A stretch of 64,000 nt of DNA from Cellulomonas sp. Y8 (GTDB taxonomy: Bacteria > Actinomycetota > Actinomycetes > Actinomycetales > Cellulomonadaceae): positions 1,860,001 to 1,924,000 of the forward strand of contig NZ_CP041203.1 in assembly GCF_008033115.1 (NCBI RefSeq), in the 5' to 3' direction. How positions within the stretch are numbered: position 1 is the stretch's first letter; every line of letters begins with the position of its first letter. A program made the translations under genes and the position numbers. The notes below the pieces were generated by a model, which saw only the letters and a list, made by a program, of their open reading frames with translations, was not told the origin of the DNA and did not search any database. Below, in pieces: positions 8,221 to 60,959 of the stretch.

Positions 8221-8294
8221 CGCCGAGATAGGACCTCCGCGTCGAGATCGGACCGCCCAAGGTCCGATCTCGACGAGAGGGTCCTATCTCGGCG
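8221..8294. repeat. Nested double palindrome between convergent operons (probable bidirectional terminator)
   Basis: The outer 15-bp stem CGCCGAGATAGGACC (8221-8235) pairs with 8280-8294. The inner 14-bp stem GTCGAGATCGGACC (8241-8254) pairs with 8261-8274 around a 6-nt loop. All four arms are variants of one word, CGAGATMGGACC, in the order plus, plus, minus, minus. It lies 18 nt after the permease stop and about 40 nt after the end of the opposing gene, so termination in both directions is likely. It is one of seven elements of this style in the window. Confidence 0.85.
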
Positions 8295-8336
8295 GCGTGG
8301 GCGCCGGAGCAGGCCCCGGGGACGGCGCGGTGCGCG

Positions 8337-10373
8337 TCAGACGGGGTCGGGCAGGAGCGACGGGTCGGCCAGCGCCTGCTCGCAGGCCAGGAGCAGCGCT
8401 CCGCCGGACCAGGCGTGGCTCAGCGTGAGCAGCATGCCCTTCGGCTGGAAGCACGCCGTCTGGTAGTACCGCTCGGACGTCATGCCCCGGTAGGCGTTGA
8501 AGTCGCCGTCGAACCGGGCGACCAGCTGCCGGAAGCACGCGAGGGTCTCGGCGGCCCGGTCGGCGTAGTGCGGGTCGCCGGTGGCGGCGGACAGCTCGGC
8601 CAGCTCCTGCGTGCACACCAGGCCGTAGGCGTGCAGGTGCTGGTTCGACGGCGAGGCGTTGTCGGCGCCGCGGGTGGCGAACCGGTAGACGTCCAGCGGG
8701 GTCCCCTCCGGGAACCGGGTGTTGTACGTGTACCGGAAGGTCAGCATCCAGTCGGCGGCGCGGCGGGCCAGGTCGAGCCAGCGCGGGTCCCCGGTGCGCC
8801 GGTGCAGCGCGACGTACGACATGACGGCGACGTACCCGTCCTCGGACGTCGGCGCCAGGTCGACGTCCTCCGGCGCGCCGTGCAGGAACTCCCGGTCGAC
8901 GAACTGCGCGTAGTGCTCGCCGGCCCGCACCGCGGCCGCGAGGTAGGCGCCGTCCGCGCCGTCCGGACCGTCCCACCGCTCCGCCTCGGCGAGCGCGGCG
9001 ACCCAGGTCAGGCCGGCGGCGCCGTGCCAGGACAGCACCTCCCCCGTCTGGGCGTGGTGGGCCGAGCCGAGGTTGCCGTCGGGCCGCTGCCGGCGGACGA
9101 CGACGTCGAGGTTCGACCGCAGCGCCGCGGCCCAGCCGGGGTGCGCGGCGCGGACATCCTCGCCCAGCTCGAGCGCCCGGGCCAGGAACAGCGACGCCTC
9201 CGCGAGCGTGCGGGAGTGCAGCGCGCCCGGGGTGCGGGACCAGCTCTGCGACCAGCCGTGCTCCGCGTACCAGACGCCCCAGAACGTGCCCGAGGGCGAC
9301 AGGTGGTCGCAGACGAAGTCGACGACCCGGGCCGCCGCCGCACCTGCCTCGTCCGCGCCCCGCCGGCGCGCGTGCGCCAGCAGCGCGTACGCCCACGGGA
9401 TGCCGCTGACCCAGCCGACGTGCATGGCCTGCCGGTCGACGGTCAGGCCGTCCCGGCCCGAGACCTCGCGGTCGAAGCCGACCGTCTCGAGCAGCACGCC
9501 CGGCTCCGCGTAGTGCCAGCGGTGCAGGCCCTCGGCGGCGAGGTCGGCCGCCTCCGCGATCCCGACCCAGGGCCGCAGCGGCGAGGCCGCGCGGGTGCGC
9601 TCGTGCTCCTCGCGCAGGATCGCGGCGTAGGCGTGCCGGTCCGGGCCGGTCGCGTACACGGCGAACCGCAGCGTGACCCGCTCCCCCGGCGCCCAGCGGT
9701 AGGTCGTCGTCTCCGCGGGGCGCGGCGTCCCCGAGCCGTAGTACGACACCGGGTCCTCGCGGAACGGGAAGGTCAGGTGCACGCTGCCGACGCCGGTCGC
9801 GACGTCGTGCGCCAGGCCGAGGCCGGTCATGCCGAGCGCGGTCGTCTCCGGGGCGACCAGCGCGACGCCGCCGGGGCCCGCCCAGGCGAGCACGGCCGGT
9901 GTCGCGGCGCGGTCCGCGCGGTACTCCCAGTGGTCGCTCACCATGCCGGCCGGGTCGTCCGCGCCCACCTCGAACCGCGGGAACGGCCGGTCGCAGTCGA
10001 CGGGCCGGTTCTCGCCGTAGAACGCGCCGGGGATCAGCCACCAGGGCGCCTCGGGCGCGGCGGGCAGGTGCACCCGGAACCGGATGCCGGCCCCGGTCGG
10101 CTCCGCGCCGCGGTGCTCGACGTCGAGCCGCACGTCGACCCGCCCCGACGGGGTGGGTGCCGCCCAGGTGGCGAGCGCGCGGAACGACCCGGCCTCGCCG
10201 GCGACCGCGCCCGGCCCCGCCGGGGTCGACGGCACGGGGAGCACGGAACCGTCCGCGAGCACCACCTCGGCCACGTGCGGCACGGTGGCCACCACGGGGC
10301 CGTCGTCGCCGGGCCACGCCGGGCCCGCAGGCCGGAGCGACCCCGTCGGTCGCAGCAGGACGCCCTCGTCCAC
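8337..10373 (-). CDS. Putative six-hairpin-type glycosidase of unknown family
   Basis: 678 aa, without signal peptide or TM helix, so probably cytoplasmic. The N-terminal half (1-270) is beta-rich, with FRVHLPAAPEAPWWL and the motif GAFYGENRPVD. The C-terminal half looks like an (alpha/alpha) toroid with repeated helical hairpins rich in Trp and His (GWVSGIPWAYALLAHA, GTFWGVWYAEHGWSQSW, TYNTRFPEGTPLDVYRF). I do not recognise the family and cannot name catalytic residues. It is the last gene of a ROK kinase-SIS-glycosidase operon under the shared operator, which supports a role in cytoplasmic breakdown of imported oligosaccharides. The start at 10373 follows the SIS stop by 52 nt. Confidence 0.7.
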   Translation of the reverse strand: MDEGVLLRPTGSLRPAGPAWPGDDGPVVATVPHVAEVVLADGSVLPVPSTPAGPGAVAGEAGSFRALATWAAPTPSGRVDVRLDVEHRGAEPTGAGIRFRVHLPAAPEAPWWLIPGAFYGENRPVDCDRPFPRFEVGADDPAGMVSDHWEYRADRAATPAVLAWAGPGGVALVAPETTALGMTGLGLAHDVATGVGSVHLTFPFREDPVSYYGSGTPRPAETTTYRWAPGERVTLRFAVYATGPDRHAYAAILREEHERTRAASPLRPWVGIAEAADLAAEGLHRWHYAEPGVLLETVGFDREVSGRDGLTVDRQAMHVGWVSGIPWAYALLAHARRRGADEAGAAAARVVDFVCDHLSPSGTFWGVWYAEHGWSQSWSRTPGALHSRTLAEASLFLARALELGEDVRAAHPGWAAALRSNLDVVVRRQRPDGNLGSAHHAQTGEVLSWHGAAGLTWVAALAEAERWDGPDGADGAYLAAAVRAGEHYAQFVDREFLHGAPEDVDLAPTSEDGYVAVMSYVALHRRTGDPRWLDLARRAADWMLTFRYTYNTRFPEGTPLDVYRFATRGADNASPSNQHLHAYGLVCTQELAELSAATGDPHYADRAAETLACFRQLVARFDGDFNAYRGMTSERYYQTACFQPKGMLLTLSHAWSGGALLLACEQALADPSLLPDPV

Positions 10374-10425
10374 GTGCCCACCCTCCGCCGCGGAGCGGCC
10401 GTCGATCGGTCGGTCTGCCGGCCGC

Positions 10426-11100
10426 TCAGGCCGCGGGCGGCTCGTCGGCGGCCCAGGCGTCCACCATCTCGCTGATCACGTGCAGCACCAAGGTGTGCAT
10501 CTCCTGGATCCGCGGCGTCGCCGAGGACGGCACCAGCAGCAGGTGGTCGGCGTGCTCCCGGGCGGGCCCGCCGTCCCCGCCGGCGAGCAGCAGCGTGGTC
10601 GCACCGTTCGCGCGGGCGGACTCGAGCGCGCGGACGACGTTCGGGGACCGGCCGCTCGTGGTGAACGCGACGACCAGGTCGCCCGGGTGTGCGAGGGCCT
10701 CGACCTGGCGGGCGAACACGTCCTCGTAGGCGTAGTCGTTCGCGATGCAGGTCATCGACGTGGGGTCCGTGCTGAGCGTGACGGCGGGCAGCGGGCGCCG
10801 GTCCCGCTTGTAGTGGCCGACGAGCTCGCCGGTCAGGTGCTGCGCGTCCGCGGCGCTGCCGCCGTTGCCGAACGTGTAGAGGGTGCCGCCGCGGGCGAAC
10901 GTGTCCCGGACCAGCTCCCCGGCGGCCCGGATGCGGTCGGCGAGCCCGACCATCGCGCCGGCCACGTCGGCGTGGGCGGCGAGGTGGGCGTGCAGCCAGT
11001 CGGCGGGGGCGTCGGGCGCGTCGGCCGCGGCCGGGCGAGCAGCGGCGGCCGGGGCGGCCGGAACGGCCGTCGTCAGGATCGGGGCGGTGGGATCAGACAC
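10426..11100 (-). CDS. SIS-domain sugar-phosphate isomerase, GmhA-like
   Basis: 224 aa. The SIS fold binds phosphosugars. Here the core TLYTFGNGGSAADAQHLTGELVGH closely resembles sedoheptulose-7-phosphate isomerase (GmhA), with the second loop FTTSGRSPNVVRAL. The GTG start at 11100 overlaps the kinase stop (11093) by 8 nt, indicating translational coupling. In this setting (ROK kinase upstream, glycosidase downstream, mannosidase regulon) the substrate is more likely a hexose or amino-sugar phosphate than a heptose phosphate; that is inferred from neighbours. About 35 Ala/Pro-rich residues precede the domain and are of unknown use. Confidence 0.85.
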   Translation of the reverse strand: MSDPTAPILTTAVPAAPAAAARPAAADAPDAPADWLHAHLAAHADVAGAMVGLADRIRAAGELVRDTFARGGTLYTFGNGGSAADAQHLTGELVGHYKRDRRPLPAVTLSTDPTSMTCIANDYAYEDVFARQVEALAHPGDLVVAFTTSGRSPNVVRALESARANGATTLLLAGGDGGPAREHADHLLLVPSSATPRIQEMHTLVLHVISEMVDAWAADEPPAA

Positions 11101-12211
11101 GAGCGGCCTCCGTCGGCGCGTGGTCGTGCGGCGGGCGGGTGGGTGCGGCGCCGGCGGCGTCGGCGGGCGCAGCGGCACCGGCGGGCGCGGCGACGACCCC
11201 CGCGCCACCCGCGGCCAGCACGTCGAACGCGATCGCCCCGGCCCCGACGACGCAGACGACGTCCCCGAGCGCGGCGAGCCGCACCGTCGCGGCGCGCGCC
11301 GCCGGCGGCATGGCCTCCCGGGCGACGATCGCCCGCACCGGGTCGAGCAGCATCGCGCCGGACCTGGTCACCCCGCCGCCGAGCACGACGAGCTCCGGCT
11401 CCAGCACGTTGACCAGGTCGGACACCGCGCTGCCGAGCAGGTCGACGGTCTCGTCCCAGACCCGCGCGGCGAGCGGGTCCCCGGCGGCAGCGGCGGCGCT
11501 GACGTCCGCGGCGGTGACGGCGGCCAGGGCGGCGAGCGACGAGGGCGTCTCCCCCGGGACCGGGTCGGCGAGGGCGTCGGCGGCCCGCGCCGCGATCGAC
11601 GACCCCGACGCGTACGCCTCGATGCAGCCGCGCCGCCCGCACGAGCAGGCGCGGCCGCCGCGGCGGACGGTGATATGGCCGAGCTCGCCGCCGTTGCCGG
11701 CCGCGCCGCGGTGCAGCCGCCCGTCGAGCACGACGCCGCCGCCCACACCGGTCGACACGGTCAGGTACACGAGGCTGCCGAGCCCGCGCCCGGCGCCGTA
11801 CCGGTGCTCGGCGACGGCCGCGGCGGTGGCGTCGTTCTCCAGCGCGAACGGGACGCCGAACGCGGCGGTCGCGAGCAGGCCGATCGGGACGTCGTCCCAG
11901 CCGGGCAGGTGCGGCGGCGACTGGAGCACGCCGGTCGGCGCGTCGAGCGGGCCGCCGCACGCGATGCCCACGGCGCCGACGGGTCCGAGCCCGGCCTCCG
12001 CGACGGCCTCGTGCCCCATCGCGAACAGCCGCGCGATCACGGCGTCCGGCCCCTCCTCGCGGCGGGTCGGGCGGACGCGCAGCCCGTGCACGGCCCCGTC
12101 CGGGGTGACCACGCCGACGGCGAGCTTGGTCCCGCCGATGTCGAGCGCGAGGACCGGCGCGCCGCCGGCCGTGCCTCCGCCCGCGGGCGCGGGCGAGCCG
12201 TCCGTCGTCAT
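11093..12211 (-). CDS. ROK-family sugar kinase
   Basis: 372 aa. ROK kinases phosphorylate glucose, mannose, fructose or N-acetyl-hexosamines with ATP. Seen: the N-terminal phosphate-1 motif LDIGGTKLAVG (from Asp24), the ROK sugar-binding/zinc signature with ELGH followed by CSCGRRGCIEAY, and a C-terminal adenosine motif VVLGGGVTRSGAML. No helix-turn-helix precedes the kinase domain, so it is an enzyme and not a NagC/XylR-type repressor. The ATG at 12211 has GGAGG 8 nt upstream. Two operator palindromes lie 92-183 bp upstream. Mannose, GlcNAc or ManNAc are sensible substrates given the surrounding glycosidases, but the sequence alone does not decide. Confidence 0.88.
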   Translation of the reverse strand: MTTDGSPAPAGGGTAGGAPVLALDIGGTKLAVGVVTPDGAVHGLRVRPTRREEGPDAVIARLFAMGHEAVAEAGLGPVGAVGIACGGPLDAPTGVLQSPPHLPGWDDVPIGLLATAAFGVPFALENDATAAAVAEHRYGAGRGLGSLVYLTVSTGVGGGVVLDGRLHRGAAGNGGELGHITVRRGGRACSCGRRGCIEAYASGSSIAARAADALADPVPGETPSSLAALAAVTAADVSAAAAAGDPLAARVWDETVDLLGSAVSDLVNVLEPELVVLGGGVTRSGAMLLDPVRAIVAREAMPPAARAATVRLAALGDVVCVVGAGAIAFDVLAAGGAGVVAAPAGAAAPADAAGAAPTRPPHDHAPTEAARV

Positions 12212-12302
12212 CCGTCCTCCAGACCCCCGGCGGGCGCGCGGCCGGGTGCGGCGGCGCGTGGCGACCCCGGAGCCCACCGGCGTCGGTGCCGTGGGATCGC
12301 CC

Positions 12303-12316
12303 TGGGATCGATTCCA
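12303..12316. promoter_or_regulatory. LacI-type operator, proximal site for the ROK operon
   Basis: TGGGATCGATTCCA, a near-perfect palindrome of the TGGNATCGNTNCCA family, 92 bp upstream of the ROK kinase start. A second copy lies 64 bp (centre to centre 78 bp) further upstream, so looping between two bound repressor dimers is possible. Confidence 0.75.
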
Positions 12317-12380
12317 GATCGAGCATAGGAGCGGGCGGAAGAGAGCGTCAAGCCAGGCGCGGGAAAACGACGCCGCGACG

Positions 12381-12394
12381 TGGGATCGAGTCCA
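12381..12394. promoter_or_regulatory. LacI-type operator, distal site for the ROK operon
   Basis: TGGGATCGAGTCCA, the same family as the site at 12303-12316 with one arm mismatch. It lies between the LacI gene's 3' end and the ROK operon. Confidence 0.65.
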
Positions 12395-12576
12395 GGTCAG
12401 CCGCCGTCCGCACCGGGCCCGACGCACGACCGGGCGCGCCGCGAGAGTGGAACGCCGTGACGGACACGCCGACGGCGTGTCGGGCGCGACGTCCCACCGA
12501 GCGGGCACGGCGGCAGCACCCGGGCGCGCGAGTGCGGCAGCCCCGCGTCAGGCGGGGGTCGTCGACCGACCCCGCG
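12395..12576. other. Intergenic remainder between LacI and the ROK operon, no gene
   Basis: Together with the two operators this completes the 365-bp gap 12212-12576. I see no credible coding sequence. The short direct repeat GCGTCAGGC occurs twice near 12544-12580, partly in the 3' end of the LacI gene. Confidence 0.4.
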
Positions 12577-13629
12577 TCAGGCCGCGGGCGGGGGCGCGGT
12601 CGAGCCGCGCTGCGCCACGGCGGCCGAGAGCATCACGGTCCGCTTGGGCGACTCGGGGCTCTGGATCCGCTCGACCAGCTGCCCGACCGCGGCCTCGCCG
12701 AGCGCGACCGCGTCCTGCGCGACCGCGGTGACGCCGGGCGTCACCATCGTCATCCACGGGGCGTCGTCGAACGACACCAGGCTGAGGTCGTCGGGCACCC
12801 GCAGGCCGAGCGCCTGCGCGGCGCGCCACACGCCCTCCGCGAGCACGTTGTTGGCCGCGAACACGGCGGTCGGCCGGTCCGGCCCGCCGAGCAGGTCCCG
12901 CGCCACGCCGGTCGCGGCGCCGACGTCCCAGCCGCCGCGCACCACGAGGGCGTCGTCCAGAGAGAGCCCGGCGGCGAGGAACGCGGACCGGTAGCCGACC
13001 AGGCGGTCCCGGCCGGTCGTCCAGTCCATCTCGTCGATGAGCAGCGCGACCCGGCGGTGGCCCTGCTGCAGCAGGCCGGTGGTGACCCGCTCGGCGGCCG
13101 CCTTGTTGTCGACCACCACGGCGTCGCAGGCGCCCTCGGCGAACTGCCGGTCGACCTCGATCACGGGGATCCGGTGCCGGCCCAGGTACTCGGCGACCTC
13201 GGCGGACAGCGGGGTGAGGATGACGCCGGCGACGCGCAGCGCGACGAAGGTCTCGGCGGCCTCGAGCTCGGCCTCGACCGATCCCGCGTCGTCGGCCAGC
13301 ATCATCGCGTAGCCGCGCTTGCGGGACTGGGCGCTGACCCCGCTCGCGAGGTCGGCGTAGAACGAGTTCCGCAGGTCGGAGACGAGCACGCCGATGGACC
13401 GGCTGACCTGCTGGCGGAGGTTGCGCGCCATCGCGTCCGGCACGTAGCCGAGCGTCTGGGCGGCGCGCCGGACCCGCTCGCGCACGGCGGGCGCCACGTA
13501 GCCGCGGCCGGTGAGCGCGCGCGAGGCGGTGGAGCGGGAGACGTCGGCGGCCTCGGCCACGTCCTTGATCGTGGCGCGGCGTCCCGGGGCGGTCGCCGCA
13601 CCGCGCGTGCCCGGCGCGGCAGCCTCCAT
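12577..13629 (-). CDS. LacI-family transcriptional repressor, probable regulator of the glycan regulon
   Basis: 350 aa, the usual LacI length. The N-terminal helix-turn-helix reads ATIKDVAEAADVSRSTASRA, followed by the hinge-helix region (PDAMARNLRQQ) and a periplasmic-binding-protein-like sensor domain (SIGVLVSDLRNSFYADL onward). The ATG at 13629 is preceded by GAGGAG at about 7-12 nt. It is the second gene of an operon with the tandem metallo-beta-lactamase protein (32-nt gap), whose promoter carries one of the shared palindromes, implying autoregulation. As the only LacI gene in the window, amid eight matching palindromes, it is the natural candidate to bind them all. The inducer is unknown. 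Confidence 0.92.
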   Translation of the reverse strand: MEAAAPGTRGAATAPGRRATIKDVAEAADVSRSTASRALTGRGYVAPAVRERVRRAAQTLGYVPDAMARNLRQQVSRSIGVLVSDLRNSFYADLASGVSAQSRKRGYAMMLADDAGSVEAELEAAETFVALRVAGVILTPLSAEVAEYLGRHRIPVIEVDRQFAEGACDAVVVDNKAAAERVTTGLLQQGHRRVALLIDEMDWTTGRDRLVGYRSAFLAAGLSLDDALVVRGGWDVGAATGVARDLLGGPDRPTAVFAANNVLAEGVWRAAQALGLRVPDDLSLVSFDDAPWMTMVTPGVTAVAQDAVALGEAAVGQLVERIQSPESPKRTVMLSAAVAQRGSTAPPPAA

Positions 13630-13661
13630 GCAGTGCTCCTCGATCCCCCGGCCCGTGGGCC

Positions 13662-15527
13662 TCAGTCCGCCACGACGTCCACGAGCGCCTCGGCGTGCTG
13701 GCCGAGGCGCAGGTCCCCGATGCTGACGTCGACGGCCAGCCGCCGGCGGACCGCCGCGGGACCCGTGGGCACCACGTCCAGGTCGATCTCCGCGTGCCCG
13801 CCGGGCGGGAGCGCGACGACGGCCTCGTCGGGGTGCGCGCGCCAGCCTAGCGGCAGCACCGCGCGCACGGTCGCCTTCCGCTCCTCGCGCGCGGGGTTGC
13901 GGACCGTCACGGTGAACCGCGCGGGCCGGTCGGCGGGCACCCGGGAGACGTAGGGGGCGATCCGCGCCATGTGCGTGTCGCTGCCCAGGTCGAGCTCGTC
14001 GAGCGGCAGCAGGTCGTGGTGGATCTGCACCAGCTCCTCGGCCTCGTCCTCCAGCATCGCGAGGTAGGAGTCGTCGACCCACCGGGGCTCCCAGTGCCCC
14101 GACACCATGACCCCCGGCGCGACCCGGCGGTAGAGCGCGGCGCTGTCCCGGTAGTCGGTGATCCGGAACAGGTTCCGGTACTGGTAGTTGAGGATCTCCC
14201 GCCGGTTCCCGGGGATGCCGAGCCCGTCCTGCTGGTCGCCGGTGACGAGCACCCGCACGCCGTCGACCTCCACCTCGAAGGCGGCGGCGTACAGCGTGTG
14301 GCCGGGCAGCTCGTGCACCGTGATCTCGTACTCGTGCCACCGGAAGGTCCCCCCGATCGGGAGGACGCGGTCGACCGGGATCGGGTCGTACCACTGGCAG
14401 GGCAGGTCGAAGCGCATCGGGTCGGTGAGGATCGGCGCGACGTTCGACGGCGCCCACACCTCGGTGCCCTCGACCTCGCGCAGCAGGTTCATCCCCGCCA
14501 CGTGGTCGTCGTGGTAGTGCGTGGGCAGCACCGCCTCGACCGTGGTGACGCCGTGGTCGCGGCGGAGCGCGGGCAGCGAGGCGAGCCACGGGCGGCGGGA
14601 CGCCCGGTCGCCGCCGGAGGGCAGGCCCGTGGTCATGTCGTACCCGTAGTCCATCAGCAGCGCCGCGCCGTCCCGCGAGACGAGGACGTACGAGCACGCG
14701 TTGCTCGACAGGTTCAGCAGGAAGTGCTCGGTGATCCGCTGGAACGGCTCCGCCAGGCGCAGCCGCAGGTCCCACGGCTGCGGACGCCGCGAGTCGACGT
14801 AGCCCCGCATCCGGGTCGCCAGCAGGCCGAGCGCGTGCTGCGGGTCGCCCATCGGGCGACCGTGGGACGGGAGCAGCAGGTCGAGGTGCTCGTCCATCAG
14901 CAGGTAGCAGGACAGGACCGTCATCGCCGGCCCCTCGTTCTCGGTGTACGACCACTGGGTGGCCGCGAGCGACCAGACCTTGCCGGGGGCGTAGACGAGG
15001 TCGCCGGTGAACCCGAGCCGCCGGCCGTCGCGCTCGACGACGTAGGACACCGACCCGGTGGTGTGGCCCGGCGTCGGGACGACCTGGACCGCGACCCCGC
15101 CGTAGACCCGCGTGCGGTACTCGGGCACCACGTCCGCGACCGGGACGGGGTCGAGCAGGGAGAACCGGTCCTCGCGCAGGTTGTAGTCGTTGACCACGCG
15201 CCGGGTGCGCCACATCTCGTCGACCCGGTCGAACAGGTCGCGCTCGACGGGCGGGACGTGGATGGCGATGCCGGCGGCGACGGCACGGGGCAGGCCCTGG
15301 CCCTGGTCGCGGTGGTGGTGGGTCATCAGCACGTCGGTGATCCGGTCGACGCCCATCTCCGCCAGGAGGTCCAGCACGACGCCGGAACCGAAGTCGATCG
15401 CGACCGCGGTGCGGGCGCCGTCGGGCGCGGGCTCGGCGGCGCGGACGACGTAGACGTGGCAGGTGTCGGCGACCCGGAACACGCCTGGCGCGACCTCGAC
15501 GACCTCGGCGGCGACGGTGGCGGGCAT
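13662..15527 (-). CDS. Tandem metallo-beta-lactamase-fold hydrolase with C-terminal beta domain
   Basis: 621 aa. Two MBL-like domains are joined head to tail. Domain 1 (about 10-235) has THHHRDQG (70-75), PGHTTG (His155), FTGD (Asp176) and PSHGRP (His222); the last His of the canonical HxHxDH is Gln75. Domain 2 (about 275-500) has the intact THYHDDH (337-342), LPGHT and VTGDQQD. The last 100 residues look like an NPCBM/NEW-type beta-sandwich (FTVTVRNPAREERKATV). There is no signal peptide. MBL folds hydrolyse esters, lactones or phosphodiesters; near an FAD sugar oxidoreductase, a sugar-lactone substrate is an attractive but unproven idea. It is first in the operon with LacI, and an operator ends 9 nt before the start codon. 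Confidence 0.82.
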   Translation of the reverse strand: MPATVAAEVVEVAPGVFRVADTCHVYVVRAAEPAPDGARTAVAIDFGSGVVLDLLAEMGVDRITDVLMTHHHRDQGQGLPRAVAAGIAIHVPPVERDLFDRVDEMWRTRRVVNDYNLREDRFSLLDPVPVADVVPEYRTRVYGGVAVQVVPTPGHTTGSVSYVVERDGRRLGFTGDLVYAPGKVWSLAATQWSYTENEGPAMTVLSCYLLMDEHLDLLLPSHGRPMGDPQHALGLLATRMRGYVDSRRPQPWDLRLRLAEPFQRITEHFLLNLSSNACSYVLVSRDGAALLMDYGYDMTTGLPSGGDRASRRPWLASLPALRRDHGVTTVEAVLPTHYHDDHVAGMNLLREVEGTEVWAPSNVAPILTDPMRFDLPCQWYDPIPVDRVLPIGGTFRWHEYEITVHELPGHTLYAAAFEVEVDGVRVLVTGDQQDGLGIPGNRREILNYQYRNLFRITDYRDSAALYRRVAPGVMVSGHWEPRWVDDSYLAMLEDEAEELVQIHHDLLPLDELDLGSDTHMARIAPYVSRVPADRPARFTVTVRNPAREERKATVRAVLPLGWRAHPDEAVVALPPGGHAEIDLDVVPTGPAAVRRRLAVDVSIGDLRLGQHAEALVDVVAD

Positions 15528-15535
15528 GACGCCTA

Positions 15536-15549
15536 TGGTATCGATTCCA
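15536..15549. promoter_or_regulatory. LacI-type operator before the MBL-LacI operon
   Basis: TGGTATCGATTCCA, one mismatch from perfect symmetry and a member of the TGGNATCGNTNCCA family. It sits 9-22 nt upstream of the MBL start, so a bound repressor would cover the start region. Its position predicts negative autoregulation of LacI. Confidence 0.75.
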
Positions 15550-15640
15550 GAGTGCGCGCCACAAGCGATGCGACGGAAGAGAAGCGCTGCTCAGCAGCGG
15601 TTTCGGCCACTATGCCCGGATCGTCCCGCGCCGCCCCGCG

Positions 15641-20571: not shown

Positions 20572-23361
20572 GGGCGGGCCTCCTGGGGGACGCGGTGGGC
20601 GGGGACGAGCGGGGCGAGGTCGGCGGCCGGGAGGTTCCAGGCCTCGAGGACCAGCCGGCGGCCCCGGGTGGGGGCGGTCCAGCGGGCGCGGAGGGTGCGG
20701 GAGGCACCGGGGAGCAGCGGCCGCGGGTCGCCGTCGAGGACCGCCCGGCCGGGCGCACCGGCGGGCCGGGCGTCGAGCAGCGCGAGGCCGACGACCGCCG
20801 GCCCGGCGCGGTGCGCGACCTCGACGCGCGCCGCGTCCGGGCCGTCCGGGCGCACGGCGACGTCGACGGTCGCCGGTGCGAGGTCGAGCAGCGGCGCCAG
20901 GTCGGCGGCCGACGTGGCGACGACCACCTCGTGGTCCAGCCGCTCCCCGTCCGCGGCGGTCCACACCACCTCCCCAGAGCAGCACGGCCGCCCGCGGCAG
21001 CGCGGCCGCGGGGTGCCGGAGGTCGCCGACCGGGCGCGGCTCCCGCACCGCGTCCGGCACCGCCCACCGGCGCTCGGCCAGCACGTCGCCGTCGGCGGTC
21101 CGCAGCCGGGCGACCACGCGCGAGCCGGCGCGGACACCCGCGTCGGACCACAGCCAGACCTCGGCCGCGGCGTGCGCCCGGCCGCCCCACGCGGTCGTCG
21201 GGGTGCGCAGCGTCGCGCGGTCGGGGGCGAAGGCGCGGGCGACCGCGTGGAACGCCGGCTTCGCGTCGCCGAGGTGGTCGACGACCGCGGTGCACCACGT
21301 GTTCGGGTACGACTCGGCGAGCTGCCAGGGCAGCACCAGCGAGCACCGCGGCCACCGGCGCCGGTCCGCCTCGACCGCGTACGCCAGGCCGGTCGCCTGC
21401 AGGTGCTGGCTCGCGCGCCGGTAGCCGTCGACGTCGGCGAGCCGACCGCCGAAGCACCGCTGCACCAGCGGCGCGTTGTCCCACCACTCGCCGAGGTGCC
21501 GGTGCACGGGGTTCGACCGGTCGAGCGGCCACACCCGGTCGGCGGGCACCAGGTGGTCGAGCAGCCGGCGGTTGGCCATGCCCTCGACGCCGAACTCGCT
21601 GTGCGCGAGGCAGGTGCCCGCGTCCGCCAGGGCGTGCTGGCCCGTCAGGCCCTGGTGCTCCCACGGGCCGTGCACGTCGTGCTGGTCGTCCGGGGCGGCG
21701 GCGATGACGTCCGCCCGGTGGTGGAACGCCGGCCCGGTGGGGGACGTCGGGAGCCACGCGCGGCCGGGGTCGAGGCGGGCGACCTCGTCGCGCAGCGCCG
21801 CCAGCACCGGCGACCGGTCCTCGTCGAGCGGGACGCCGTCGAGGTCGAGCTCGTTGCCGCCGCCCCAGACCAGCAGGCTCGGGTGGTGCGTGCGCGGCGG
21901 CACCACGACCGCGGCCTCGCGCCGCATGAGGTCGACGAACTCCGCGTCCTCGGCCGGCGCGCTCTGCATGCCCGACGACGACTGGGACAGCTCCTGCCAG
22001 ACCAGCAGCCCGGCGCGGTCGCAGGCGTCGAAGAAGGTGTCGGTCTCGACCAGCCCGCCGCCCCACACCCGCAGCAGCGCCGCGCCCGACGCCGCGGCCA
22101 GCCCGACCAGGTGCTCGACGCGGTCGCGGGTGGTCGTGCCGTACTGGGCGTCGGCGGGTGCCCAGTTCCAGCCGACGAGCGGGAGCCGGACGCCGTTGAC
22201 CTCCGCGGTGTACCCGCGGGCGTCACCGGGAGCGCCCGCGTTCGGGACCAGGCGGGCGGAGCGGAAGCCGGTCGTGCCGCGCCACAGCTCGCGGCCGCCG
22301 TCGGCGACGGCCAGGCGGACGGTGTACGTCGTGGGGGTGCCGAGGCGGCGGGGCCACCACAGGTCGGGCGCGGGGACGCGGAGGGTGACGTCGAGCGGGC
22401 GGGCGGAGGTCGCGCCCGGGAGGCGCGGGCCGGGGGCGTCGAGCGCACCGGGGAGGTCGACGCGCCGAGCGGCCGCGACGGCGCCGGAGGCGTCGAGCAC
22501 CGCCACGTCGACCGCGGCGTCCCCGCCGTCCCCCACCTCGACGATCCCGCGCACCCGTACGGTCCCGTCGACCGCGGCCCCGAGATCGGTGCTTCCGGCC
22601 GAGATCGGTGCTTCAGAGCACCGATCTCGAGCCGAACCACCGACCTCGGCGGCCGCGAGGTCCGCCCGGACGGTCACCTCCGCGAGGTGCACCCGGTCGA
22701 TCACGACGCGGGCCGGGCGCCACAGGCCCTGGTGCGGCAGCCGCGGGCAGAAGTCCCAGCCCTCGGTCATCCGAGGCCGGTGCACCCGGACGCGCTCGGT
22801 GCGCCCGACCTGCGGCTCGTTCGGCGGCACCGGGTCGACGACGACGGCCAGCCGGTGCGTGCCCGGGGTCGCCGCAGCGGTCGGGACCTCCGCCCGGAAC
22901 CGGTGGTACAGCCCCTCGACACGGCCGAGCGGCTCCCCGTCCCAGAGCACCGTGCCCGACGGGTCGACGCCGTCGAGCTCCAGCACGGCCCGCTCCCCCG
23001 GCCCGCGCGCCGGCAGGTCGACGGTGCGGCGGTAGACCCAGTGCCGGGCGCCGGTCCACTCGGCGGCGCGGCTGTTCCGGTCCCGGTACGGGTCGGGCAG
23101 CTCGCCGGCGCGCGCCAGGTCGGTGACCACCGAGCCGGGCACGGTCGCGGGCCACCAGCCGGGGGTCGTGGCGGCGGCCCGGGCGGCGTCGGCGGCGTTG
23201 TTCCCGGCCGCGACCGGCGCGTCGACGTACCACTGCCAGGTGTCGCCGAGCGCCTCGCGGACCAGCCAGCCAGGGCCGGCGAGGTCGAGGACGCGCCCGT
23301 CCCGGGAGCGCAAGGGGGCCGGGGCGTCGTCGCTGGTCGGCGGATGTGGCATCGATGCCAT
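20568..23361 (-). CDS. GH2 beta-mannosidase-like enzyme (apparent frameshift; contains an in-frame palindromic repeat)
   Basis: Roughly 930 codons. Domain order: jelly-roll sugar-binding domain (WQWYVDAPVAAGN, VPGSVVTDLARAG), Ig-like domain, TIM barrel with the acid/base in WGGGNELD and the nucleophile in AHSEFGVEG, then beta domains. ACDRAGLLVWQEL and the SEFG motif fit beta-mannosidases best. The frame breaks near 20975 (a run of C); the true C-terminus continues as EVVWTAADGERLDHEVVVA to the stop at 20568. At 22581-22650 a palindromic repeat is translated as an extra segment between the first two domains. The start lies inside the operator: ATG at 23361 or 23352. It is the first gene of the GH2-GH1-GH36-FAD operon. 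Confidence 0.85.
22581..22650. repeat. Palindromic repeat element inside the beta-mannosidase coding sequence
   Basis: The word CGAGATCGGTGCTTC occurs twice in direct orientation (22581-22595 and 22600-22614), then inverted as AGCACCGATCTCG (22617-22629) and again in degenerate inverted form (ACCACCGACCTCGG, 22636-22649). This is the same plus, plus, minus, minus layout seen in the intergenic palindromes, and its CGAGATCGG core matches the element at 8221-8294. The frame stays open through it, adding about 22 residues including CSEAPISAGSTD. Confidence 0.8.
23347..23360. promoter_or_regulatory. LacI-type operator overlapping the GH2 start codon
   Basis: TGGCATCGATGCCA is a perfect 14-bp palindrome and the most symmetrical member of the family. 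Both candidate start codons of the GH2 gene lie within it, so a bound repressor would block initiation directly. The divergent small membrane protein gene starts 127 bp away. Confidence 0.8.
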
Positions 23362-31643: not shown

Positions 31644-31753
31644 GTGAGGTCGGCACAACGGCGCGCGGTCGTCACTCACGAGTGACGACCTCACCCGATT
31701 GTGACGACCTCACCGGCTTGTGACGACCTCACCGGGTCGGGCCGACCTCACCG
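31644..31753. repeat. Multi-copy inverted/direct repeat region between convergent genes
   Basis: The word TGACGACCTCAC appears three times as spaced direct copies between about 31682 and 31733, with a degenerate fourth copy (GCCGACCTCACCG), preceded by inverted copies GTGAGGTCGGCAC (31644-31656) and GGTCGTCACT (about 31667-31676). A 10-bp hairpin forms between the last inverted and first direct copy. It sits between the OtnC-like gene and the opposing STAS gene, so termination in both directions is plausible. It belongs to the same style as the 8221 and 50458 elements but with extra copies. Confidence 0.75.
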
Positions 31754-35370: not shown

Positions 35371-35465
35371 CGCCGAGCGCGGTGGGCCCCAGCGACCGCG
35401 GTGGTTCCCGCCGGGCGCGGTCGTTCCATCTACCGCGCTCGGCGCGAAGCACCGCGCTCGGCACG
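35371..35465. repeat. Palindromic repeat element between convergent GH38 and GH84 genes
   Basis: CGCCGAGCGCGGT (35371-35383) is matched by inverted copies ACCGCGCTCGGCG (35432-35444) and ACCGCGCTCGGC (35451-35462), with partial copies (GACCGCGGT, GCGCGGTCG) between. It fits the plus...minus, minus style of the other elements and probably terminates transcripts from both sides. Confidence 0.7.
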
Positions 35466-40550: not shown

Positions 40551-40570
40551 CCCGCGCCTCGACCGTGCAC

Positions 40571-40617
40571 CCGACGCGTCGAGCGAGCAGGCCACGGCTA
40601 CTCGCTCGACGCGTCGG
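40571..40617. terminator. Strong bidirectional hairpin between convergent GH38 genes
   Basis: A 17-bp perfect stem, CCGACGCGTCGAGCGAG (40571-40587) with its complement at 40601-40617, around a 13-nt loop. It lies 20 nt after one GH38 stop and 15 nt from the other. The stem contains the self-complementary GACGCGTC, so it shares the repeated-word style of the other elements. Confidence 0.8.
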
Positions 40618-40632
40618 CTACCCCCTCGGCGA

Positions 40633-44850: not shown

Positions 44851-44890
44851 CGAGGGCCCCGCCGCGGACGGCACCGCGGCGGGGCCCTCG
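44851..44890. terminator. Hairpin terminator between the SBP gene and tadA
   Basis: A 17-bp perfect stem, CGAGGGCCCCGCCGCGG (44851-44867) with its complement at 44874-44890, and a 6-nt loop. It lies between convergent genes and probably works both ways. There is no T-tract. Confidence 0.8.
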
Positions 44891-50457: not shown

Positions 50458-50513
50458 CGAGTGCCTACCGGACACGTCGAGTGCCTACCCAGCGGATAGG
50501 CACTCGACGTGTC
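50458..50513. repeat. Palindromic repeat element between convergent GNAT and dtd genes
   Basis: A 17-bp perfect stem, GACACGTCGAGTGCCTA (50471-50487) with its complement at 50497-50513 and a 9-nt loop, is preceded by an extra direct copy CGAGTGCCTACCGG (50458-50471). Same plus, plus, minus style as other elements and a probable bidirectional terminator. Confidence 0.8.
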
Positions 50514-55420: not shown

Positions 55421-55434
55421 GGAAGCCCTTCTTG

Positions 55435-55542: not shown

Positions 55543-55548
55543 CTGCCG

Positions 55549-55554: not shown

Positions 55555-55586
55555 ACGACGACGCGGCCCCGTGCCTTCCCGACGCC

Positions 55587-56081: not shown

Positions 56082-56153
56082 GGCGGTCTCCAGGGGGGTG
56101 AGGCGGCTGGGGTGGTCGAGCCGGGGCCGGGCGGGTGCCGGCCGGGACGCCGG

Positions 56154-56594
56154 TCAGGCGGCGGCCGGACAGCGGTCGAGCGCGCCGAGCGCCTCGACGG
56201 CCTGCTCCCGGGTCGTCGCGCCGGACAGCCGGCCGCGCACGGCGCCGGCGCCGTCCAGCACCAGCACCGTGGGCGTGCGCAGCACGTCGAACCTCCGGAC
56301 CAGGTCCAGGCGCGCCTCGGCGGCGACCTCGACGTGGGCGAGCCCGGTCCGCTCCCCCGCGAGGGCGCCCAGCACGGCGGCGGTGCTGCGGCAGGGCGCG
56401 CACGCCTCGGACGAGAGCTGCAGGAACGTGGCGGCGGACCCGAGCGGCGCGCCGAGGTCGGCGGCGGTCAGCCGGTCGGCGACCCCGGCACCGCCGCGGG
56501 CCGCCACGAAGCGCCCGTTCCGCGAGCGCCACAGCAGACCGACGACGACGGCGGCCCCGAGCACGCCGAGGACCAGCAGGACGCGCAGGCCCAT
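56154..56594 (-). CDS. Membrane-anchored thioredoxin-like protein
   Basis: 146 aa. One N-terminal TM helix (LRVLLVLGVLGAAVVVGLLW), then a thioredoxin fold with a CAPC redox motif (SSEACAPCRSTAAVL) and the cis-Pro TPTVLVLDG. With the DUF4395 gene 72 nt downstream it forms a common actinobacterial pair thought to act in extracytoplasmic thiol chemistry. The ATG at 56594 is preferred to a GTG at 56600. Confidence 0.87.
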   Translation of the reverse strand: MGLRVLLVLGVLGAAVVVGLLWRSRNGRFVAARGGAGVADRLTAADLGAPLGSAATFLQLSSEACAPCRSTAAVLGALAGERTGLAHVEVAAEARLDLVRRFDVLRTPTVLVLDGAGAVRGRLSGATTREQAVEALGALDRCPAAA

Positions 56595-56645
56595 GCCCAC
56601 CCCCCGGGGTCGCGGCGCGGGCGCGCCCGGCGGGCGGCCCGGTCG

Positions 56646-57414
56646 TCAGCCGACGAGCACGCGGCCGACGACGTAGACCAGGATGCCGGTGACGGCGACG
56701 GGCAGCACAGCGACCGCCCACCCGGCGAGACGATGTTCCAGGGCGGGCAGCCGGTCGAACAGCGCGTCGCCCGCGGCGACCAGGACGCCGATCGCCGCCC
56801 CGAGCAGCGCCCCCGACAGCAGCCCGACGGTGGGCAGCGCGGCACCCGCGACCAGCCCGCCCGCGACGGCGGCGCCGAGCGTCGCGCCGGCGCCCGCCCA
56901 GCCGCGCAGGGGCAGCGCGGTGACGGCCGACCCGACGGCGAGGGCGACCGCACCGGTCACCACGACGGCGTCGCCCGCCGCCGTGCGCTCGGCGGCGAGC
57001 CAGCCGGCCGCGCACACGGGCACCAGCGCGCCGGCGACGGTCCCGGCGACCGACTCGACCAGCCGCTCGCGCCCGTCCCGCCGCGCGAGCTCCGCCACGA
57101 ACGCGGCGAGCACCGCGCCGGCCGAACACCGCGGGCACGTCGCCCAGCAGCGGCTCGGACGTCGTGACGTGCACGACCACGACGGCCGCGACCCCCGCGA
57201 GCCCGATCACGACCCCGCTCCCGACGCGCGCGGGCAGCCCGGCGACACGGGGCCAGCCGACCGCGAGGACGCCGGAGAGGACGACGAGGAGGGCGGCGAG
57301 GACGACGCCGTCCCGGCCGGCGAGCGAGACGCCCCCGAGGACACCGGCGACGGCGACGAGCGTCGCCAGGACGGCCGTGGTCACGGCGCGGTTCGAGGCG
57401 GGCACGGGCGCCAT
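56646..57414 (-). CDS. Multi-pass membrane protein, unknown (apparent frameshift)
   Basis: About 256 codons from an ATG at 57414. Seven to eight hydrophobic helices are expected ([63 protein letters not shown], then in the shifted frame [19 protein letters not shown] and several more). The frame shifts by one near 57120 within a GC run, with hydrophobic sequence of the same type on both sides. It resembles neither known transporters nor enzymes that I can identify. Divergent from glnR. Confidence 0.65.
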
Positions 57415-57571
57415 CCTCGCATCCCGGGGCCCCGCACCCGGCATCGGGCCGGTCGCGGCCGCCCGGGGGACGCGCCCCGCTTGTACCACCGCCATGTGTC
57501 GCGGACGCAGGCCTCGACGTGACATCCGAGGGGTACCGTGTCCCCAATTCGGACGGGAGGAGGGCCGCTGC

Positions 57572-58303
57572 GTGGCCGACCTGCTGCTGCTCACCCCCGC
57601 ATCGGGGGGTTCGTCCCAGGTGCTGCCCGCGCTCGGGCTGCTGTCCCACCGGGTCCGCGTGCTGCCCGTGGAGCCCTCGGCCCTCGTGGACGCGCCCGAC
57701 GCCGACATCGTCGTGCTGGACGCGCGCCGCGACCTGGTGACCGCGCGCACCACGTGCCGCCTGCTGCGCGCGACCGGCCTCACGGTGCCGCTCGTGCTGG
57801 TGCTGACCGAAGGCGGCCTCACGGTCGTCACGGCCGAGTGGGGCGCCGACGACATCGTGCTGGAGAACGCGACGCCCGCCGAGGTCGAGACCCGGTTCCG
57901 GCTGGTCATCGAGCGCGCCGCGCGGTCGTCCTACGACGACCAGCCGCAGGAGATCTCCTCCGGCGAGCTCATGATCGACGCCGGCGGGTACACCGCCCGG
58001 CTGCGCGGCCGCCCGCTCGACCTCACCTACAAGGAGTTCGAGCTCCTCAAGTACCTGGTGCAGCACCCGGGACGCGTCTTCACCCGCGCCCAGCTGCTCC
58101 AGGAGGTCTGGGGCTACGACTACTACGGGGGCACCCGCACGGTCGACGTCCACGTCCGCCGGCTGCGCGCCAAGCTCGGCCCCGAGCACGAGCAGCTCAT
58201 CGGCACCGTGCGGAACGTCGGCTACCGGTTCGACCCGCCGAAGGACCGCCGGTCCGCGGAGAGCAGCCCGACGTCGCCCGCCGAGGTCGCCGCGGACGCC
58301 TGA
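57572..58303 (+). CDS. glnR: GlnR-type OmpR-family response regulator
   Basis: 243 aa. An atypical receiver domain ([21 protein letters not shown]) with Asp50 in [10 protein letters not shown] but without the usual acidic pair at its start is followed by a winged helix of OmpR type ([53 protein letters not shown]; positions about 155-205). This matches GlnR, the global nitrogen regulator of actinobacteria, which is thought to act without a cognate kinase. The GTG at 57572 has GGGAGGAGGG upstream. Confidence 0.92.
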
Positions 58304-58372
58304 CCGACGTCCACCACCTACGCAGGGCCGGGGCCGTCGGTCGCGCTCGCCACGCGCCGCCACGATGGCGGG

Positions 58373-58588
58373 ATGACCCCGCTGACCTGGGTGCTGTCCG
58401 GCCTGTCCGCCGTCGTGCTCGTCGGCGCGCTCGCCCGGCTCCTGCACCGCACGCGCCCCGGCCGCGCGGCCCGGGGGCTGCTCGTCGTGACCACCGACCC
58501 CGCGGCCGCCACCCGCGCGGTCGAGAGGGTCGCCCTCGAGGTCGAGGCCGCCGGGGACGAGGTCGACGCCGGACGCGGCTCGCCCTGA
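58373..58588 (+). CDS. Small membrane protein, unknown
   Basis: 71 aa. One N-terminal TM helix ([19 protein letters not shown]) and a short charged soluble tail. It lies 69 nt after glnR and 88 nt before nhaA. The function is unknown. Confidence 0.6.
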
Positions 58589-58676
58589 CGCCCGCCGACG
58601 CGGCCGGTACGATCGTCCGCGGTGTGCCGGGAAGTCTGGTCGGCGTCCCCGTCGTCGACCCCACGGAGAGCCGCCC

Positions 58677-59937
58677 GTGCCCCCCTCCCCCGCACCCGCC
58701 CCGCGACGCCTGTTCGGCACCCTGTCGCCCGGCGGACTGGCGAACCTGCTCGACACCCTCCGCGCCGAGCGCACCGGCGGCGTCCTGCTGCTCGCCGGCG
58801 CCGTCCTCGCGCTGCTGTGGGCGAACTCCCCGTGGTCGGCGTCCTACACCGCGCTGTCGGAGACCGTGGTCGGCCCGGCGGCCCTGCACCTCGACCTCAG
58901 CCTCGCGTCGTGGGCGACCGACGGCCTGCTCGCGATCTTCTTCTTCGTGGTCGGCGTCGAGCTCAAGCGGGAGATCGTCGACGGGGAGCTCCGGCGCGTG
59001 CGCACCGCGGTCGTGCCGGTCGTCGCCGCCGTGGGCGGGATGGCGGTCCCCGCGCTGCTCTACCTGCTGGTCAACGCGACCGCCGCGGGTGCGACCCGCG
59101 GGTGGGCGGTGCCGACCGCGACCGACATCGCGTTCGCCGTCGCGGTGCTCTCGGTGGTCGGCCGCAGCCTGCCCGCGTCGCTGCGGGCCTTCCTGCTGAC
59201 GCTCGCCGTGGTCGACGACCTGCTCGGCATCGTCGTGATCGCCGTGGTCTACACCGACGGGCTGCACCTCGCCCTGCTGGGCGCGTCGCTCGTGGCGGTG
59301 GCGGCGTTCGCGCTGCTGGTCCGGGTCCGCCGCCCGGGCGTCGCCGGGCACGCAGCCCTCGTGGTGCTGGCGGTGACCGCGTGGGCGCTCATGCACGCGT
59401 CCGGGGTGCACGCGACCATCGCCGGGGTGCTGCTCGGCCTCACCGCGCCGGCGCTGGCCCGTCCGGGTGAGCCGTCGAGCGTCGCGGAGCGCCTCGAGCA
59501 CCGGTGGCGCCCCGTGTCCGCGGGGTTCGCGGTGCCCGTGTTCGCGCTGTTCGCGGCCGGCGTGCCGCTGTCCGGCGGCGCGCTCGCCGAGGCCGTCCGG
59601 GACCCGGTGGCCCAGGGCGTCGCGCTCGGGCTCGTGGTCGGCAAGCCGCTGGGCATCCTGGCGGCGACGTGGCTGGTCGCGCGGTTCACCCGCGCCACCC
59701 CTCGCCCCCGACCTGCACTGGCGGGACGTGGGCGCCGTGGGGCTGCTCGCCGGCATCGGGTTCACCGTCTCGCTGCTCATCGGCGAGCTCGCCTTCGGGG
59801 CCGGCAGCGCCCACGACGAGCACCTCAAGGTCGCGATCCTGCTGGCGTCGACGACGGCCGCGGTCCTCGGCGGCGCGGCCCTCGCGGCGCGCGACCGGGC
59901 GCACCGGTCCCGCCGGACGGGGTCCGGGACGCGGTAG
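58677..59937 (+). CDS. nhaA: NhaA-family Na+/H+ antiporter (apparent frameshift)
   Basis: About 420 codons, GTG start. Eleven to twelve TM helices typical of NhaA. The unwound-helix motif [22 protein letters not shown] carries the ion-binding Asp pair, and [17 protein letters not shown] and [21 protein letters not shown] are diagnostic. The frame shifts near 59696 in a CCACCCCTCGCCCCC run; the last helices ([20 protein letters not shown]) are in the other frame and end at 59937. Probably a sequencing insertion. It would exchange Na+ for H+ at alkaline pH. Confidence 0.9.
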
Positions 59938-59948
59938 GTTCGGCGTCG

Positions 59949-60872
59949 ATGACCGTCGACTCCGCCGCCCTCCTGCTCGACGGCCCGTGGCGGCACCACT
60001 TCGTCCCCGCGAACGGCTCCCGGTTCCACGTGGCCGTCGCCGGCCCGGACGACCGGGACGCCCCGCTGGTGGTGCTGCTGCACGGGCTGCCCGAGCTGTG
60101 GTGGGCGTGGCGCCACCAGCTGCCCGCCCTCGCCGAGGACGGGCACCGCGTCGTCGCGATGGACCTGCGCGGCACCGGCGGCTCCGACAAGCCACCGAGC
60201 GGCTACGACGTGCCGACCCTGACCCGGGACGTCGCCGGCGTGGTCCGGTCGCTCGGCTGCGACCGCGCGGTCGTCGTCGGGCACGGCGTCGGCGGCGGCG
60301 ACGTGGCCTGGGCCATGCCCGCCTACCACCCGGGACTCACCCGGGGCGTCGCGGTGCTGTCCTCCCCGCACCCGCTGACCCGCCGGGCGGACCCCCGCTC
60401 CGGGCTCCGCGCCCGGGCCGCGCAGCGGATGGCCGAGATCCAGGTCCCGTACCTGCCCGAGCGCGCGATGACCCGCGGCGACCTCGTCGCGCGGCTGCTG
60501 CGCGAGTGGGGCGGCCCGCGCTGGCCGGACCCCGCGGCGCTCGCGCTGTACCGCCGGGCCGCGCACGTCCCGTTCGCGGCGCACTCCGCGCTGGAGCAGG
60601 TCCGCTGGCTGTACCGCTCCGGCGTGCGCGCCGACGGGCGCCGGCACGCGGTCGCGCTGCGGGAGGCGGCGCCGGTGCCGACGCTGCAGGTGCACGGCGG
60701 GTCGGACGGCTGCTACCCGGTCTCCCGGGCGATGGCCGACGGGTCCGTGGCCCGCCGGCTCGGGCCGCACTACCGGTTCGAGATGCTCTCCGGCGCGGGC
60801 CACTACCTGCCGGAGGAGGAGCCCGACCGCGTCACCGCCGTGCTGCGCGACTGGCTCCGCGAGCTGCCCTGA
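59949..60872 (+). CDS. Alpha/beta hydrolase, epoxide-hydrolase-like, without the usual nucleophile
   Basis: 307 aa. The oxyanion region [19 protein letters not shown] and [12 protein letters not shown] are of epoxide hydrolase type. At the nucleophile elbow, where Asp or Ser is expected (GHDWGG/GHSMGG), it has GHGVGGG with Gly113. The acid Asp (VHGGSDG) and general-base His ([10 protein letters not shown]) are present. It may therefore be inactive or use other chemistry. It begins 11 nt after nhaA. Confidence 0.85.
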
Positions 60873-60876
60873 CCTC

Positions 60877-60959
60877 CCTCCCGTTCGCCGAGCGGGCACA
60901 CGATGTCCCCTCGCGCCGTGGGGTGGGGACGTCTACTGCCCGCTCGGCGGGACGGGAGG
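60877..60959. repeat. Large palindrome overlapping the 3' end of nth
   Basis: The outer arm CCTCCCGTTCGCCGAGCGGGCA (22 bp, 60877-60898, quoted in two halves: CCTCCCGTTCG, CCGAGCGGGCA) pairs with 60937-60959, which has one extra base. An inner stem pairs ATGTCCCC (near 60903) with GGGGACGT (near 60925). The right arm encodes the last residues of Nth (PPVPPSGQ). It lies between convergent genes and probably terminates both. Confidence 0.75.

What the first reader, a model, noticed from the sequence alone, without database searches (positions are those of the whole stretch)
8221..60959. A family of complex palindromes, each made from its own word repeated in both orientations
At 8221-8294, 22581-22650, 31644-31753, 35371-35465, 40571-40617, 50458-50513 and 60877-60959 a 10-17 bp word is present in direct and inverted copies, mostly plus, plus, minus, minus. 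The words differ between loci but several begin CGAG (CGAGATAGGACC, CGAGATCGGTGC, CGAGCGCGGT, CGAGTGCCTA, CGAGCGGGCA). Six of seven sit in convergent gaps. Ordinary single-hairpin terminators also occur here (2258, 44851, 62999), so this is a distinct style. Word duplication within an element suggests an active copying process.
Basis: seen in the sequence. Interest (0 to 1): 0.72.

Follow-up and report, generated by a model that had tools for sequence, protein, structure and literature searches.

The report
Nuclease-paired palindromic repeats in Cellulomonas
The odd palindromes are scattered copies of several repeat families, and each family appears to belong to its own DNA-cutting enzyme, whose gene is usually bracketed by two copies of the same palindrome.

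Summary
The seven structures are real: each folds better than all of its 200 shuffles. The host is a Cellulomonas. Words are not unique to a locus; they recur genome-wide as arrays of 19-20 bp units, + + - -. No RAYT was found (PF01797).

The partner is a family of proteins predicted to join an AbiEi-like DNA-binding part to a nuclease part folded like Vsr and the homing endonuclease I-Bth0305I. Their genes are bracketed by matching palindromes at 70 of 88 usable Cellulomonas loci and 14 of 29 loci of other actinobacterial genera, against 3 of 300 random places. Clades differ in word. Six of seven window elements match a nuclease's flanks (47-74 bits; 300 random stretches at most 42); e3 matches only a contig-edge locus, by eye. 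D/E and C words occur in 5 of 5 and 8 of 8 genomes where I found that clade. Three species carry alleles with three different words at one chromosomal position, and dispersed copies follow each genome's own allele. Elements come and go between relatives.

Best reading: a REP-like system whose enzyme is a Vsr/homing-type nuclease, not a RAYT. That the nuclease reads and copies the words is inferred.

The parts
8219..8296 (.). e1: class A solo element, words CGAGATAGGACC / CGAGATCGGACC, + + - -
   Evidence: kept with changed words in G009; 67 bits to flanks of G009 nuclease L172
22579..22652 (.). e2: class A solo element, word CGAGATCGGTGC, + + - -, in frame inside an open frame whose C-terminal part is a GH1 glycosidase
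   Evidence: present in G009, absent in G015; 52 bits to flanks of own nuclease L171
31644..31753 (.). e3: class B array, word TGAGGTCGTCAC, + + - - - -, period 19
   Evidence: a different palindrome family in G009, nothing in G015; no match in the usable nuclease flanks (32 bits), word seen by eye beside contig-edge nuclease L201
35371..35465 (.). e4: class C element, word CGAGCGCGGT, + + + - -
   Evidence: class C in G009, another family in G015; 69 and 68 bits to flanks of nucleases L183 (G009) and L181 (own)
40560..40632 (.). e5: class D/E element, framework GACGCGTCGAG with word CGAGCA/CGAGTA
   Evidence: kept with changed words in G009, G015 and L121; 74 bits to flanks of own nuclease L191
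50458..50529 (.). e6: class D/E element, framework GACACGTCGAG with word TGCCTA
   Evidence: absent in G009 and L124-L128, other words in G015 and G037; 47 bits to flanks of nuclease L188
60877..60959 (.). e7: class F element, word CGAGCGGGCA with inner GATGTCCCC stem (core 60886-60949)
   Evidence: absent in G009, replaced in G015 by palindrome-nuclease gene-palindrome; 71 bits to flanks of G040 nuclease L252
12447..12497 (.). possible decayed class G element (GTGGAACGCCGTGACGGACACGCCG and imperfect inverse), like the flanks of own nuclease L186
   Evidence: inverted repeat I20; resemblance by eye to L145/L186 flanks

Best explanation
The seven structures are solo, dispersed members of several palindromic repeat families. 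Each family is paired with one clade of a chromosomal protein that joins an AbiEi-type winged-helix DNA-binding part to a Vsr/I-Bth0305I-like nuclease part and whose gene is usually bracketed by two copies of the family's palindrome. Shown: bracketing, clade-to-word pairing, dispersal, and gain, loss and word change between relatives. Predicted by model: the two folds. Inferred: the AbiEi part reads the word, so the + + - - array is a set of about four binding sites laid out as a foldback; the nuclease part nicks or cuts the array, perhaps in its extruded hairpin form; repair by copying homogenises words within a genome and occasionally seeds new copies at gene 3' ends, where they are tolerated and may act as two-way terminators. 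It works like a REPtron (RAYT plus REPs) but with an unrelated, homing-endonuclease-like enzyme.
Against: No experiment. 18 of 88 genus loci and 15 of 29 others fail the flank test, including G040's D/E nuclease L257 and G019's class C nuclease L268. Own class A nuclease L171 has TTCGGTG beside it while the commonest dispersed word is ATCGGTG. e3 has no match among usable flanks; own nuclease L177 has no copies in the 400-kb sample. Most nuclease genes sit at conserved positions, 71 of 95 genus loci, so they are not themselves jumping often. Class C words also occur in four genomes with no such nuclease found (1, 1, 3, 5 matches). Co-occurrence is not corrected for ancestry. G040 and G019 were placed in their clades only after the word searches.
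Confidence: 0.62

Rival explanations
1. Solo-scar (homing) model: the mobile unit is the cassette palindrome-nuclease-palindrome, which homes into intergenic sites; recombination between its two palindromes deletes the gene and leaves a solo palindrome, like a solo LTR.
For: Direct bracketing; the nuclease part models onto a homing endonuclease catalytic domain; cassettes at shared positions beside core genes; one cassette at a non-resident place, G015's e7 gap, where this genome has a solo element and G009 nothing.
Against: The e7 solo here is of another family (F, not X). No case of a same-family cassette in one genome and solo at the same place in another was found among the loci held. Spacers between words differ between copies of one family, so copies are not recent identical scars.
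Confidence: 0.18
2. Regulatory reading: the flanking palindromes are autoregulatory operators and terminators of AbiEi-type proteins, and dispersed palindromes are decoy or protective sites that keep the nuclease from attacking the chromosome; no mobility is involved.
For: AbiEi represses its own promoter through inverted repeats (PMC7319586, passages); the upstream palindrome ends a median of 101 nt before the nuclease domain.
Against: A second copy lies just after the gene (median 15 nt past the stop); dispersed copies sit at 3' ends, not promoters; they come and go between relatives.
Confidence: 0.12
3. Bidirectional terminators shaped by selection and arm-to-arm conversion, with the nuclease link coincidental.
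For: 3'-end location; strong hairpins; arms covary beyond 500 shuffles at 6 of 12 variable pairs in 41 D/E hairpins.
Against: Does not explain matching palindromes on both sides of nuclease genes, word-clade co-occurrence or allele-specific words; gaps lacking the element need not gain a simple hairpin, and G009 has both at e5.
Confidence: 0.05
4. Ordinary REP/BIME elements or MITEs moved by a transposase.
For: Size, palindromy, clustering and 3'-end location resemble REPs (PMC3733652, abstract and sections 6 and 16 read).
Against: No Y1 transposase match in the genome; matching palindromes bracket the AbiEi-Vsr type genes. Insertion-sequence families were not searched systematically.
Confidence: 0.03

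Closest known systems
REPtron: RAYT (TnpA-REP) with REP/BIME elements
   Same: Dispersed extragenic palindromes at gene 3' ends, an enzyme gene bracketed by its own repeats, several families per genome each with its own enzyme (PMC3733652, section 16).
   Different: The enzyme is not a Y1/HUH protein (PF01797 absent) but an AbiEi-Vsr type nuclease; elements are 4-6 unit arrays with a 19-20 bp period; the genes stay at conserved positions beside core genes.
CGTC REPs
   Same: Palindromic repeats for which no dedicated transposase was found (PMC3733652, abstract and section 16).
   Different: Short tagged hairpins mostly of alpha-Proteobacteria; no link with a nuclease is reported in what I read.
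Vsr-like homing endonuclease I-Bth0305I (EDxHD family)
   Different: No intron or intein host; the gene is bracketed by palindromes that also exist as solo copies elsewhere.
AbiEi antitoxin (type IV toxin-antitoxin AbiE)
   Different: Fused to a nuclease; I did not look for an AbiEii toxin gene beyond the neighbours seen in 11 loci, where none was recognised.
Caulobacter VsrA (DUF559 Vsr-like protein)
   Same: DUF559-type nuclease domain (PMC12907096, passages).
   Different: Discussed as mismatch repair tied to a methyltransferase; the text has 0 occurrences of 'palindrom'.

Membership tests
REPtron (RAYT + REP) | Y1/HUH tyrosine transposase (PF01797) in the genome | tested here: not met
   0 of 1 genome, 5 of 14 control genomes ring
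REPtron (RAYT + REP) | Enzyme gene flanked by copies of the dispersed palindrome | tested here: met
   Met, but by a different enzyme: 70 of 88 genus loci, control 3 of 300
REPtron (RAYT + REP) | GTAG (or CGTC) tag at one end of each hairpin | not tested
   Most units begin CGAG as read; no tag search was made
AbiEi antitoxin | AbiEi winged-helix and C-terminal domains | tested here: met
AbiE toxin-antitoxin system | Adjacent nucleotidyltransferase toxin gene | tested here: inconclusive
   Neighbours read in 11 loci, nine of them named by Pfam; none is a toxin, but no dedicated search was made
Vsr/MTES_1575/DUF559 nuclease | Domain match and acidic core | tested here: met
Homing endonuclease | Gene moves by cutting and repair at a target lacking it | not testable with these tools
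   Only suggestive: conserved places beside core genes and one occupied/unoccupied pair at e7
Intrinsic terminator | Transcripts end at the element | not testable with these tools
   No RNA data; location and hairpin strength are compatible
Known structured RNA | Rfam family match in the window | tested here: not met
   Only a tRNA at gathering thresholds

The most novel reading that the evidence does not exclude
Actinobacterial genomes carry a large, unrecognised class of selfish genetic element: AbiEi-Vsr nucleases that each read a private word, are bracketed by palindromic arrays of that word, and drive its copying and concerted change across the chromosome. This would be a second, independently evolved enzymatic basis for REP-like repeats, with a protein-word recognition code that can be read from genomes alone, and a candidate for the missing partner of REPs that lack a RAYT, such as CGTC REPs.
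Probability: 0.5. Interest if true: 0.92.

Novelty: categorically new. Interest (0 to 1): 0.85.

Why it matters
Proteins of this family are common in Actinomycetota: profile hits in 54 of 60 Cellulomonas genomes and 75 of 296 sampled genomes of the phylum, own genome included. Among the 120 homologues listed, those with a source name are mostly called 'hypothetical' or 'AbiEi family antitoxin domain-containing'. Pairing each with its own palindrome family gives them a concrete, testable substrate. It shows that REP-like repeats can exist beside a dedicated enzyme that is not a RAYT, bears on what handles REPs that lack a transposase, and offers many natural protein-DNA word pairs for studying how recognition co-evolves.

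Tried and rejected
Tried and led nowhere: over-represented 12-mers in the sample were swamped by codon usage. Phages gave no match to the nuclease, plasmids 3 weak ones. The PDB sequence search gave nothing meaningful; the relation to AbiEi, Vsr and I-Bth0305I came only from the fold. Literature searches listed no paper that by title or abstract start links such nucleases to palindromic repeats. The lists for searches were capped (20 of 734, 15 of 2,404, 20 of 21, 15 of 928, 20 of 164, 10 of 26, 15 of 45); all 14 DUF559, 4 MTES_1575 and 6 papers were listed, of which I read passages of PMC12907096 and PMC3710099 (it names MTES_1575 as a Vsr-family REase). PMC12306157 (RepRanger) has no 'RAYT', 'nuclease' or 'Cellulomonas' in its text. 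Only open-licence papers are held.

Considered and rejected: 'each element has its own word'; a RAYT; plain terminators as the whole story. The Mantel correlation I do not count as evidence of co-evolution, because many pairs are orthologous loci; the dispersed-copy tests carry that claim. Earlier flank tests used poorer gene limits or contig-edge loci whose two flanks overlap; one search replaces them, with 7 of 124 loci dropped (L174, L196, L200, L201, L208, L209, L266). The random control inside one search drew from the whole window, elements included, and reached 70 bits in one set and 46 in another; one search repeats it with the elements excluded (300 stretches, at most 42). Single short words with one mismatch do not discriminate for classes A and C, so paired patterns were used. 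Not all nuclease hits were fetched, so clade membership of genomes rests on 124 loci. The probabilities treat genomes as independent. Hairpin covariation is mixed: 6 of 12 variable pairs exceed every shuffle, 6 do not.
Full report
SETTING. The window lies in a single-contig genome of 4,475,991 bases. It is 76.6% G+C, and the named contigs that share its genes are mostly Cellulomonas.

OBSERVATION. All seven structures are present. As single-stranded DNA each folds better than all of its 200 shuffles. An exact-word scan finds 16 places in 464 kb with a 10-mer twice direct and once inverted, against 1, 1 and 0 in simulations. The anatomy is regular: units of 19 bp (classes A, B, C) or 20 bp (D/E) arranged + + - -, with variants + + + - - and + + - - - -. 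Most units begin CGAG. The words are not private to a locus: 31 matches of the CGAGATMGG tandem pattern (control 0), 25 places with the D/E inverted pair (control 0), 16 matches of the class C pair (control 0).

TURNOVER. The window is syntenic with G009 and G015, mostly at 85-90% identity. At the seven gaps the elements are kept with the same or changed words (e1, e2 and e4 in G009; e5 in G009, G015 and L121; e6 in G015 and G037), replaced by another family (e3 in G009, e4 in G015), replaced by a cassette (e7 in G015), or absent (e2 and e3 in G015; e6 in G009 and L124-L128; e7 in G009). At e6, G037 carries a + + - - array of a new word (TGTGCA); aligned with G009 it is a clean block of 73 nt, and a target-site duplication cannot be told from the element's own ends. 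The ordinary hairpins at 44851 and 62999 are kept as simple hairpins in the relatives compared. Element e2 lies in frame inside a long open frame that G009 shares.

THE PARTNER. There is no Y1 transposase match. In G015 the e7 gap holds palindrome - gene - palindrome; the gene encodes a 348-residue protein with MTES_1575 and DUF559 matches over their cut-offs. This genome has five homologues by that protein. In four of the five a palindrome scan found matched palindromes on both sides, each with its own word; for the fifth (L144) it found the class palindrome on one side only, and a pairwise comparison of the flanks of the same gene (L171) then found a matching copy on the other. A profile of 15 members finds 5-8 matches per genome in five close genomes, and hits in 54 of 60 genus genomes and 75 of 296 genomes of the phylum, own included. 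I examined 124 loci (30 + 25 + 29 + 40), not all hits. Seven were dropped because a contig end cut them. Of the rest, 70 of 88 genus loci and 14 of 29 loci from other genera pass a fixed two-sided matching test; the same test passes 3 of 300 random places in this genome and 1, 2 and 0 of 100 in three relatives.

PAIRING OF WORD AND NUCLEASE. Six of the seven window elements match nuclease flanks at 47-74 bits, the three ordinary hairpins reach at most 33, and 300 random stretches outside the elements at most 42. e3 matches only a contig-edge locus by eye (L201). Across 60 genus genomes D/E words occur in exactly the five where I found a nuclease at least 74% identical to own L191. Class C words occur in all eight genomes with its two clades (4-16 matches) and in four others (1, 1, 3 and 5 matches, the last all at one tandem place). 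Class A words occur in four genomes, all among the six with that clade. G040 (D/E) and G019 (C) were assigned to their clades after the word searches. These counts are not corrected for shared ancestry.

Of 95 genus loci, 71 share outer flanks with another (groups of 14, 8, 8, 7, 6, 5, 5, 5, 4, 3, 2, 2, 2), beside core genes such as tuf and rpsJ, guaA, rph, or prs with the L25 gene. Similar flanks at orthologous loci therefore prove little, and I discount. The stronger test: G024, G055 and G051 carry alleles at one such position (the group of 14) with three different words. In 400-kb samples away from the nuclease genes listed for them, G024 has 4 copies of its 13-mer (one mismatch allowed), G055 5 and G051 5, with at most 1 in any other sample and reversed-word counts of 0-1 (blast version). 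Against the reading: in this genome the commonest class A word differs by a base from the word beside its class A nuclease, and own nuclease L177 has no copy in the sample, so dispersed copies may lag or be lost.

HOW IT MIGHT WORK. AbiEi binds two 23-bp inverted repeats as monomers, and Rv2827c binds four (PMC7319586, passages). A + + - - array of 19-20 bp units is what such a DNA-binding part would need, which explains the repetition inside an element. In 41 D/E hairpins, pairing exceeds 500 shuffles at 6 of 12 variable pairs (for example A-T 18, C-G 10, T-A 3 at one pair), and inner left and right words agree at 5.0 of 6 positions against 3.6 shuffled in 30 elements. This fits recognition of a folded form, or conversion between arms; the other six pairs do not exceed chance. 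I infer that the nuclease part nicks or cuts the array and that repair by copying spreads and homogenises it; the I-Bth0305I-like fold makes cut-and-copy the natural guess. A solo-scar model and a purely regulatory model remain open. Dispersed copies prefer 3' ends: 9 convergent, 13 tandem, 1 divergent and 2 inside genes among 25 places of a 400-kb sample, while 59 of 187 gaps of that sample are divergent and 27 convergent.

KNOWN OR NEW. Logically this is closest to REPtrons, where REPs bracket RAYT genes and repeat-specific enzymes exist (PMC3733652, abstract and sections 6 and 16). It fails their enzyme test. My searches, partly capped, showed no paper linking DUF559/MTES_1575 or AbiEi-fusion nucleases to palindromic repeats in the open-licence library; other journals were not searched. 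I rate it categorically new in composition, working like a known kind, with mechanism and mobility inferred.

Noticed in passing
L137 (G015) 14176-15571, the orthologue of the window's e7 gap: A whole cassette, palindrome - nuclease gene - palindrome, sits where this genome has a lone element of another family and G009 has nothing.
   Followed up: yes
window 22579-22652: Element e2 is in frame inside a long open frame and would add about 20-24 residues to the protein; G009 has it, G015 lacks it.
   Followed up: partly
window 12447-12497: A decayed palindrome resembling class G, the family beside own nuclease L186.
   Followed up: no
window 5451-5582: A CCGGGT/CGGGCT hexamer tandem repeat inside gene 4606-5814, unrelated to the elements.
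   Followed up: no
L122 / G009: The record labelled Cellulosimicrobium cellulans DE0111 is syntenic with this Cellulomonas genome and placed in the same genus by the genome search; the label looks wrong.
   Followed up: no
literature: PMC3733652 and PMC12907096: Caulobacter crescentus is named among CGTC-REP species without REP-flanked transposases and also carries DUF559 Vsr-like proteins: a possible second case of the pairing.
   Followed up: no
L147-L151 (five close genomes): The best PF18741 match in each of five genomes lies in a very long open frame (over 1,100 residues), probably the large helicase-type MTES_1575 protein and not a cassette nuclease.
   Followed up: no
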